From Cyanobium sp. E1_MAG_00006 (GTDB lineage Bacteria; Cyanobacteriota; Cyanobacteriia; PCC-6307; Cyanobiaceae): a stretch of DNA of 44,544 nucleotides. Shown piece after piece: positions 32,905 to 34,324 of this stretch. A program made the translations under genes and the position numbers. Every line of letters starts with the position of its first letter. Position 1 is the stretch's first letter. The notes under the pieces are model-generated. The model was given only the letters and a program-made list of their open reading frames with translations, was not told the DNA's origin and searched no databases. The DNA is taken from assembly GCA_027488975.1 (NCBI GenBank), contig JAIYAQ010000033.1, forward strand, positions 1 to 44,544. Direction: 5' to 3'.

Positions 32905-33120
32905 ATGAAGCGACTGCTCTTTCTCGCTCTTGCCTCCGCCTGTCTTCCCTCTGTCGCCTGCGCTCAAACGAACAACTCCGGGGCGGTTCCTGCGATGTAT
33001 GCCACCAAGGCAGAAGCAGAAAAGGCAGCGCCCAAATTCAACTGCACAGGGGCACATCAGATGGGCGACAAATGGATGCCCTGCTCTAAGCACGGCGATG
33101 CCAAGACCCATGCCCACTGA
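32905..33120 (+). CDS. Small exported DUF3721-type protein (71 aa)
   Basis: A signal peptide (MKRLLFLALASACLPSVACA) is followed by a short mature part with the DUF3721 pattern: AMYATKAEAEKAAPKFNCTG, then AHQMGDKWMPCSKH. The two Cys and several His residues could bind a metal such as copper or zinc, but this has not been shown for the family. ATG 32905 is the natural start. The end overlaps the start of the next gene by 11 bases, so the two are probably translated together. Confidence 0.75.
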   Translation: MKRLLFLALASACLPSVACAQTNNSGAVPAMYATKAEAEKAAPKFNCTGAHQMGDKWMPCSKHGDAKTHAH

Positions 33121-33547
33121 GCAACCTCAAGCTTGCGGCAGCAAACCCAAGGCAGTCGCCATCGGCATTGCACCGCTGGGAATCGTCTCCATCGGCATCG
33201 TCCCCATGGGCGTGGTGAGCATTGGCGTGGTGCCGATGGGAGTGATCAGCATCGGGGCAGTCGGCATGGGCGTGATCAACGCCTGCGTGGTGGGGATGGG
33301 AATCCTGGTGGCGGGCGTCAATGTGATGGGCGTGTGGTGGGTCGGAATGGACGGCATGGGTCCGAAACGCCTGGGAGCAGCCAATGCGATCCACTCCAGC
33401 CACCACCACGCGCACCAGTCGGCCCAGCCGCAGAACCTCTACGCCTACCCGAGCAAACAGGTGGCCCTGCAGAAGGCCAAAGCGTTGGGCTGCCATGGCG
33501 TCCATGCCATGGGATCGCTCTGGATGCCCTGCGAGCAACACCCATAG
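33110..33547 (+). CDS. Period-5 glycine-repeat protein with DUF3721-like tail (145 aa)
   Basis: After a short N-terminus (MPTEQPQACGSKPKAVA), residues ~18-85 form about 13 consecutive five-residue units beginning with Gly (GIAPL, GIVSI, GIVPM, GVVSI, GVVPM, GVISI and so on; one unit has Cys in place of Gly). The C-terminus repeats the motif of the upstream gene: LYAYPSKQVALQKAKALGCH, then GVHAMGSLWMPCEQH. The repeat part is very hydrophobic and could be a membrane-inserted or tightly wound beta-helix-like structure; this is inference. ATG 33110 overlaps the DUF3721 gene by 11 bases. Together they look like a two-gene, possibly metal-binding unit. Confidence 0.65.
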   Translation: MPTEQPQACGSKPKAVAIGIAPLGIVSIGIVPMGVVSIGVVPMGVISIGAVGMGVINACVVGMGILVAGVNVMGVWWVGMDGMGPKRLGAANAIHSSHHHAHQSAQPQNLYAYPSKQVALQKAKALGCHGVHAMGSLWMPCEQHP

Positions 33548-33555
33548 TGGGGATG

Positions 33556-33676
33556 ACGGGCCCACTGCCCTTGCCAGTGGCCAAACGAGGAAAGTGCGGT
33601 GAGGGAGTCCCCAAGGCCGCCGCTGTCCCGCAACTGTGATGGGGTTCGCCCCTCAGTCAGAACACTCGCCGTCACC
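33556..33676 (+). promoter_or_regulatory. Cobalamin (B12) riboswitch
   Basis: The sequence carries the conserved core of the AdoCbl/cobalamin riboswitch class: AAACGAGGAA-type start, CGGTGAGGGAGTCC, then GCCGCTGTCCCGCAACTGTG (the B12 box region) and a closing CAGTCAGAACACTCGCCGTC. A P1 helix can pair GACGG (33556) with CCGTC (~33673). It lies about 40 bases before the HupE gene, so cobalamin most likely shuts this gene off at translation initiation or by early termination. Confidence 0.88.
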
Positions 33677-33712
33677 AGTCCCATTCGTGCTCGGCGAGGA
33701 CCGAGCCATCCC

Positions 33713-34324
33713 ATGAAACGCTTCCAATCCCCCCTGATTGCCCTGACCGCTGGATCCGCCGTGGTTCTGGGCACCCATCCCGCCTTGGCTCACGGCACTG
33801 CCACTGGTGGCGCCCTGGGCGGCCTGACCCATCCGCTGCTGGGCCTGGATCACCTGGTCATGCTGCTAGCGGTGGGCACCGCGGCCTCCTTCATCTCATC
33901 CCAACTGCTGCTGTGGGCACTGGGAGGCGCCGTTCTTGGTGCTGTCGTGGGGTTCACGGGTTTCTCGATTGCCTCTGCTGAGGTACTTGCGGCACTGGCC
34001 ATCTCAGCGGTGGGCGCTGTGATCCTGCTGGCGAGCAGGATCGCCAAGACCAGCCAACCCAACACCCTCACCACCCTCAGCGGTGCCGTAGTGGCGGCAG
34101 GGATCTCCATTCACGCCATGCTGCATGGGCTGGAGGCACCCAAAGACAGCACCAGCCTCCTTTGGTGGACCGGTGCGTTGGCGAGTTCCGCCCTGGTGTG
34201 TGGCGGCACCGTTCTGCTGCTGAAGAAACTGCCGCTCACCTGGACCAAGGCCGCGGCGATTGCCTTTCTAGCGATTGGTGGATTGCTTGCCGTTGGCTCT
34301 GCGGGTCTGCTGGCCGGTGCCTGA
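33713..34324 (+). CDS. hupE: HupE/UreJ-family metal permease, probably cobalt
   Basis: The 203-residue protein has a signal-like N-terminus ending ALAHG, the HupE motif GGLTHPLLGLDHLVMLLAVG, about six membrane helices and the second His motif SIHAMLHGLEAP. HupE/UreJ proteins are secondary permeases for nickel or cobalt. The cobalamin riboswitch directly upstream argues for cobalt import in support of (pseudo)cobalamin synthesis. ATG 33713 is preferred over upstream starts that would fall within the riboswitch. Confidence 0.88.
   Translation: MKRFQSPLIALTAGSAVVLGTHPALAHGTATGGALGGLTHPLLGLDHLVMLLAVGTAASFISSQLLLWALGGAVLGAVVGFTGFSIASAEVLAALAISAVGAVILLASRIAKTSQPNTLTTLSGAVVAAGISIHAMLHGLEAPKDSTSLLWWTGALASSALVCGGTVLLLKKLPLTWTKAAAIAFLAIGGLLAVGSAGLLAGA

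What the first reader, a model, noticed from the sequence alone, without database searches (positions are those of the whole stretch)
32905..33547. DUF3721-type motif found twice, once fused to a 13-fold five-residue glycine repeat
The first gene is a simple exported DUF3721 protein. The second overlaps it by 11 bases, begins with a near-perfect Gly-x-x-x-hydrophobic array of about 13 units and ends in the same GxHxMGxxWMPC-x-x-H motif. A strict period of five is typical of beta-helical solenoids, but the hydrophobic content suggests a membrane setting. I know of no described protein with this design.
Basis: partly seen in the sequence, partly recalled or inferred. Interest (0 to 1): 0.62.

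Follow-up and report, generated by a model that had tools for sequence, protein, structure and literature searches.

The report
Metal-linked glycine-repeat protein pair, cyanobacteria
Two overlapping genes in a picocyanobacterium encode small proteins that probably handle trace metals; one carries a strictly five-residue glycine repeat whose relatives in other cyanobacteria sit behind the same control site as a gene switched on when copper runs out.

Summary
Gene A (32905-33120) encodes 71 residues with an apparent signal peptide and DUF3721. Gene B (33110-33547, 11-base overlap) encodes 145 residues: Gly at 13 of 14 phased positions (0 of 20,000 shuffles), a His-rich linker and a second DUF3721. 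The design is common: 57 of 58 listed own-family genomes match, and the array alone occurs in other cyanobacteria.

The array family corresponds to Slr0601 of Synechocystis, a protein of unknown function reported to be in the copper-responsive PetRP regulon. A dyad found by an exhaustive scan, GACN5GTC, precedes 33 of 49 array genes outside the family, and petJ in the same orientation; petE carries it reversed. Of array genomes tested, 27 of 28 with petR have it, 0 of 5 without.

The 11 picocyanobacterial genomes tested lack petR, and the box is at chance level. Their A-B pairs instead often sit beside metal regulators, porins and metal permeases.

Best reading: a metal-capture and transfer module (metal unsettled; copper favoured for the array) with a Met/His ladder every ten residues. 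Metal binding is inferred, not shown. AlphaFold gave only low-confidence all-beta, period-ten models, so fold and membrane setting stay open.

The parts
32905..33120 (+). Gene A: 71-aa protein with DUF3721
32905..32964 (+). Probable Sec signal peptide of A (MKRLLFLALASACLPSVACA)
   Evidence: judged by eye; no predictor run
32998..33093 (+). DUF3721 domain of A (C-x-G-x-H-x-M-G-x-x-W-M-P-C-x-x-H)
   Evidence: 69.5 bits
33110..33547 (+). Gene B: 145-aa array + His-rich linker + DUF3721
   Evidence: same start and 11-base overlap in L015 and L016
33110..33120 (+). 11-base overlap of A and B
   Evidence: an A-type frame ends within 120 bp of the B start in 65 of 79 loci
33155..33361 (+). Gly array, residues 16-84; Met at 33, 43, 53, 63, 73, 83
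33392..33415 (+). His-rich linker (HSSHHHAH)
33446..33544 (+). DUF3721 domain of B
   Evidence: 59.4 bits; predicted helix + hairpin, pLDDT about 80
33540..33687 (+). Cobalamin riboswitch just after B
   Evidence: 38.5 bits (gathering score 31.5)
33713..34324 (+). HupE/UreJ-type permease downstream of the riboswitch
   Evidence: 47.8 bits (cut-off 23)

Best explanation
A and B form a transition-metal capture and transfer module. A is exported and binds metal through the Cys-His-Met-Met-Cys-His set of DUF3721. B carries the same domain, tethered by a His-rich linker to a hydrophobic beta-type array with Met (His in relatives) every ten residues. Metal caught by A is handed to B and on to, or along, the membrane and a partner permease. 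The array is the older part: elsewhere in Cyanobacteria it stands alone, mostly with a His-rich tail, is placed behind the PetR-type box and, by analogy with petJ, should be made when copper is short. In picocyanobacteria the array was fused to DUF3721 and rewired to other control. Shown: gene structure, conservation, box, neighbours. Inferred: metal binding, hand-over, membrane contact, order of events, and the metal itself (copper for the array family; copper, zinc, nickel or cobalt for the picocyanobacterial pair).
For: Ligand residues C128, H132, M134, M139, C141, H144 are invariant in 81 of 81 aligned B proteins. Three or more His follow the array in 22 of 28 sequences of A2 and 71 of 81 of A1, where two of the His belong to DUF3721. 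GACN5GTC precedes 33 of 49 array genes outside the family (17 of 22 genera, 8 of 11 families); control windows mean 0.67, other spacings at most 3. It also stands before the petJ-like-array operon in 6 of 6 f25 loci, before 8 of 16 cytochrome c6-type loci (same orientation) and 6 of 11 plastocyanin-type loci (reverse). Of genomes with petR status and a readable promoter, 27 of 28 with a PF03965 gene have the box and 0 of 5 without (Fisher 2.5e-5, not phylogeny-corrected). A petR-like gene and a protease gene directly follow the array in 4 loci; cytochrome c6-like genes are adjacent in f25 and f12. slr0601-slr0602 are stated to be PetRP-regulated. Pico sequences, of 82: MerR within 1.5 kb of B in 17, porin in 22, Fur-family gene in 10, ZnuB in 10; a HupE frame matches from 10-19 bp after B in 6.
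Against: No metal binding was measured. Neighbours in picocyanobacteria point to several metals at once. The window pair has no such box and its genome no PF03965 gene. PF03965 genes also exist in 18 of 24 array-lacking genomes, so the array is not needed for the switch. G215 has a petR-like gene beside the array but no box; G446 has array, box and petR-like gene but no plastocyanin hit. The box was not found at several petE/petJ-type genes of petR-bearing genomes, for example both in G116. MerR activators of the CueR/ZntR type usually answer to excess, not shortage (recalled). In WH8102 the Zur regulon is eight genes; I did not check that WH8102 carries B. In 10 Prochlorococcus loci a Zur-box-like palindrome stands between znuC and znuA but was not seen before gene A. 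AlphaFold confidence is low.
Confidence: 0.5

Rival explanations
1. Sequestration under metal excess: A soaks up surplus metal in the periplasm and B stores or buffers it at the membrane; the MerR regulator switches them on at high metal.
For: A MerR-family gene of metal-sensor type (best NCBIfam hits CadR/PbrR, ZntR, CueR, all below cut-off) lies about 400 bp before B, on the other strand, in 17 of 82 sequences. His-rich, Cys-containing small exported proteins suit buffering.
Against: Partner genes include uptake-type permeases (HupE, ZnuB) and porins. The array family elsewhere carries the petJ-type, low-copper orientation of the box.
Confidence: 0.22
2. Photosynthetic-switch factor: the array does not move metal but adjusts thylakoid complexes or assembly when plastocyanin is replaced by cytochrome c6.
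For: slr0601-slr0602 are stated to be in the PetRP regulon and Slr0602 was reported to contact photosynthetic proteins (commentary). The box is shared with petJ-type genes.
Against: His-rich tails, the Met/His ladder and the DUF3721 ligand set. f14 genomes keep the array although plastocyanin was found in neither of the two tested and a petR-like gene in none of the four tested.
Confidence: 0.18
3. Purely structural hydrophobic filament or scaffold without a metal role.
For: Extreme regularity, GRAVY 1.81, strand-rich low-confidence models.
Against: Recurring metal-gene surroundings and regulation.
Confidence: 0.07

Closest known systems
Slr0601 (Synechocystis sp. PCC 6803), PetRP regulon, function unknown
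   Same: Same array profile (G076 relative E 3e-20). In G076, and by the printed translations in G093, the gene lies between an NTR/DDOR-type gene (slr0600) and dnaE, with a small partner gene next to it.
   Different: These relatives end in a short His/Met-rich tail and lack DUF3721; the window gene lacks the box. The Slr0601 sequence itself was not fetched by name.
DUF3721 (PF12518)
   Same: Both proteins pass the cut-off.
   Different: Pfam calls it a protein of unknown function; one copy here is fused to the array.
GLTT repeat (PF01744)
   Same: Five-residue Gly period, 39.7 bits over a cut-off of 21; array-only relatives reach 90 bits.
   Different: No GLTT residues here; the finer period is ten.
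Pentapeptide-repeat proteins (PF00805, PF01469)
   Same: Period of five.
   Different: No PF00805 match in B or in 8 array-only proteins; PF01469 at most 18 bits against 26.4.

Membership tests
DUF3721 (PF12518) | Score above Pfam gathering cut-off | tested here: met
   69.1 and 57.2 bits against 27
Slr0601-type array family | Shared array profile with conserved Gly and Met/His spacing | tested here: met
Slr0601-type array family | PetR-type control (box upstream, petR-like gene in genome) | tested here: not met
   No box before the window pair; no PF03965 gene in the genome. It is a relative with different control.
GLTT repeat (PF01744) | Score above Pfam gathering cut-off | tested here: met
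   39.7 bits against 21
Pentapeptide-repeat (Rfr-fold) proteins | Pfam pentapeptide-repeat score above cut-off | tested here: not met
   No PF00805 match; PF01469 sub-threshold, in relatives only
Pentapeptide-repeat (Rfr-fold) proteins | Right-handed quadrilateral beta-helix | tested here: inconclusive
   Models too weak; no match with Z of 5 or more
Glycine-zipper membrane proteins | GxxxG spacing of four | tested here: not met
   Main spacing is five
Metal-binding proteins | Measured metal binding | not testable with these tools
   Only conserved ligands and context

The most novel reading that the evidence does not exclude
The array is a new kind of beta-solenoid whose one edge is a ladder of Met/His residues, one per ten-residue step, forming a Cu(I)-type metal conduit in or along a cyanobacterial membrane. 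It is loaded by an exported DUF3721 chaperone in picocyanobacteria and by a His tail elsewhere, and serves as the missing metal-acquisition arm of the plastocyanin/cytochrome c6 switch.
Probability: 0.1. Interest if true: 0.88.

Novelty: new variant of a known kind. Interest (0 to 1): 0.64.

Why it matters
Picocyanobacteria are among the most abundant phototrophs (recalled), and nearly all genomes sampled here match this design, including streamlined Prochlorococcus. How cyanobacteria win copper and other metals is only partly known. The box at the array genes predicts, across 17 genera, a further component of the plastocyanin/cytochrome c6 response beyond the two carriers, and gives a direct test of what Slr0601 does.

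Tried and rejected
Zinc as the only metal: rejected. A Zur-box-like palindrome (recognised by resemblance, recalled) seen between znuC and znuA in 10 Prochlorococcus loci was not seen before gene A there, by reading the printed sequences, one of them short. My neighbour cluster 3 proved to mix a SynZur-like protein with another Fur-family protein, so its count of 24 loci is not used.

Phage or plasmid origin: no match in phages at E 0.01; viral contigs gave 7 pattern hits and no relative. Plasmids were not searched.

Recent DNA tandem repeat: synonymous codons vary between units.

BlaI-type TACA-N2-TGTA dyads before array genes: 0 of 69 loci and again. The exhaustive dyad scan found GACA-N3-TGTC instead.

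CTAG repeats as a genome-wide regulon: in three genomes 5, 7 and 10 matches against 17, 20 and 9 for the backwards control.

Solved structures: no relative by sequence (best E 0.044 and 4.8).

Circularity: the copper-gene queries were chosen because I had seen them beside arrays. The petR count and the dyad scan do not have that flaw.

Papers: DUF3721 in 0 papers; array motif strings in 0; slr0601/slr0602 in 3. The Garcia-Canas 2021 paper was not held. That its operator is GACN5GTC, that slr0603 is dnaE-N, and that 1zde is the Synechocystis intein are recalled.

Full report
OBSERVATION. Gene A (32905-33120) encodes 71 residues with an apparent Sec signal peptide (by eye) and a DUF3721 domain. 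Gene B (33110-33547) overlaps it by 11 bases and encodes 145 residues: a short polar start, a nearly uncharged array, a His-rich linker and a second DUF3721. Gly occupies 13 of 14 same-phase positions from residue 19 to 84; shuffling the same segment reached 13 in 0 of 20,000 trials. The unit is really ten residues. The residue before Gly alternates Ile-type with Met-type, giving Met33, 43, 53, 63, 73 and 83. In array-only relatives the same alternating slot mostly holds His, Met, Thr or Arg. Synonymous codons differ between units, so this is not a recent DNA duplication.

DISTRIBUTION. The window's genome has three A-B pairs. A scan of genome contigs reported 338 related stretches and kept the best 80 loci, nearly all labelled as cyanobacteria, mostly Synechococcus, Cyanobium or Prochlorococcus. 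Of 79 of these loci (L028, without a usable start, dropped), 65 have a frame with the A-type motif ending within 120 bp of B. In 386 cyanobacterial genomes the array-DUF3721 profile matched 93: 57 of the 58 listed from the window's own family (the matches shown for G274 and G342 are partial), 34 from the same class and 2 from elsewhere in the phylum. DUF3721 itself was found in 36 genomes, every own-family genome listed, and in none of the other 256 sampled. Outside the family the matches that I read are array-only proteins, mostly ending in a His-rich tail; the two most distant were not read.

LINK TO COPPER. In G076 the array gene lies between an NTR/DDOR-type flavoprotein gene and dnaE that ends in an intein half, and has a small partner gene behind it; the printed translations of G093 show the same order. 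The intein part matches 1zde over 129 residues at 235.9 bits; that 1zde is from Synechocystis is recalled. Two papers name slr0600 as the NTR/DDOR gene (passages); slr0603 as dnaE is recalled. So the array gene is taken as the slr0601 counterpart. One paper states that petE, petJ and slr0601-slr0602 are regulated by PetRP, and that Slr0601, of unknown function, fell together with cytochrome c6 at high pH (passages). A commentary says that the PetRP regulon has four proteins, two unknown (first of two parts read).

I then scanned all four-letter dyads with gaps of 0-10 upstream of array genes. GACA-N3-TGTC stood out: 28 of 69 loci (genomes partly counted twice) against 0.6 expected. After removing repeats, GACN5GTC lay within 300 bp of 33 of 49 array genes, in 32 of them at 65-87 bp, in 17 of 22 genera and 8 of 11 families. 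Control windows averaged 0.67 (maximum 4 in 500 draws) and other spacings gave at most 3. Two of 51 loci had no usable start and were dropped. The form GACN5GTC-TTT also precedes 8 of 16 cytochrome c6-type loci (4 of the 16 are from genomes without a petR-like gene and have none; one start could not be read). Plastocyanin-type loci carry GACN5GTC-AAA instead, in 6 of 11; some of the other starts may be chosen too far upstream. In the f25 genus, where a cytochrome c6-like gene and the array form one operon, the box stands before the cytochrome gene in 6 of 6 loci. PetR represses petE and activates petJ, so the orientation predicts petJ-like, low-copper expression. A petR-like gene (PF03965) was present in 29 of 34 array-bearing genomes outside the family and in 0 of 11 within it. 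Of 28 such genomes whose promoter could be read, 27 have the box (24 directly, 3 before the cytochrome gene) and G215 does not; of 5 without, none has it (Fisher 2.5e-5, not corrected for kinship). In four loci a petR-like gene and a protease gene follow the array directly. In the two tested, the protease passes the M48 cut-off but not that of M56. Against this, 18 of 24 array-lacking genomes also have PF03965, so the array is optional.

PICOCYANOBACTERIA. Here the box is at chance level (6 of 75 loci within 650 bp of B, none in the window). Of 82 sequences examined, some of them short, a MerR-type gene lies about 400 bp before B in 17; a porin within 1.5 kb in 22; a Fur-family gene directly after B in 10, all in records labelled Synechococcus or Prochlorococcus but for L061 (labelled gammaproteobacterium); ZnuB in 10, all Prochlorococcus; an ArsP-type permease in 4. 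A HupE frame matches from 10-19 bp after B in 6, one of them in the window's own genome. In the window a cobalamin riboswitch and HupE follow B. Pfam supports Fur, MerR, ABC-3, ZnuA, CobW, OprB and ArsP names for the representatives. The MerR resembles CadR, ZntR and CueR about equally, all below cut-off, so the metal cannot be read from it. In WH8102 the Zur regulon is eight genes (passages).

STRUCTURE. AlphaFold with 81 sequences gave pLDDT about 45 over the array and about 80 over DUF3721, which is a helix followed by a hairpin carrying ligand residues. The array alone with 77 sequences gave strands at 16-21, 25-30, 35-41, 45-52, 56-61 and 65-69, pLDDT 50 overall. Both runs give beta strands, spaced about ten residues over residues 16-50, and no helix in the array, but neither is reliable. 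No solved relative was found.

MECHANISM. Shown: gene order, invariance of Cys128, His132, Met134, Met139, Cys141 and His144 in 81 of 81 aligned B proteins, the box, and the neighbours. Inferred: DUF3721 binds a soft or borderline metal; A carries it outside the cytoplasm; B receives it on the same domain and passes it by the His linker and the Met ladder towards a permease or the membrane. Copper is favoured for the array family by regulation; for the picocyanobacterial pair copper, zinc, nickel and cobalt all remain possible. The main rival is sequestration under excess, suggested by the MerR neighbour.

VERDICT. A real, deeply conserved, uncharacterised protein pair. Its parts have database names, but no function for them was found in the searches made. 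The new result is the tie of the array, across many cyanobacterial genera, to the control site of the plastocyanin/cytochrome c6 genes, and its fusion to DUF3721 with different control in picocyanobacteria.

Noticed in passing
L064, L067, L068, L069, L076, L077, L078, L081, L083, L084, L087, L089, L094, about 260-570 bp before gene B: In Prochlorococcus, CTAG words 9-10 bp apart (up to three) stand shortly before gene A and, in several loci, just before the divergent porin gene; not a Zur-like box; regulator unknown.
   Followed up: partly
window 33540-33687: Cobalamin riboswitch between gene B and a HupE-type permease, its match starting inside the last codons of B.
   Followed up: no
L069:1144-1350, L088:6642-6893, L144:5064-5285, L145:5014-5268: Further picocyanobacterial array-only proteins of 69-85 residues with Arg in the first ladder slot and no His tail.
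   Followed up: partly
G326 (L162, L163): One genome with two array genes, one beside a cytochrome c6-like gene and one in front of petR- and protease-like genes.
   Followed up: partly
G058 (L148), G083 (L140), family f14: Array kept although neither plastocyanin (PF00127) nor a petR-like gene was found; a P-type ATPase (with an HMA domain in L140) lies about 3 kb away.
   Followed up: partly
L209: Porin-like gene divergent from gene A in a Prochlorococcus-type genome has a His-rich stretch after its signal-like start (GGGDHRGHHDHNDSH).
   Followed up: no
L017, L018, L021, L030, L038, L045: Pairs lie near permease genes that look like TauE and SBF types (named by eye) and an ArsR-type regulator with a weak BigR match; possible sulfur or arsenic island.
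   Followed up: no
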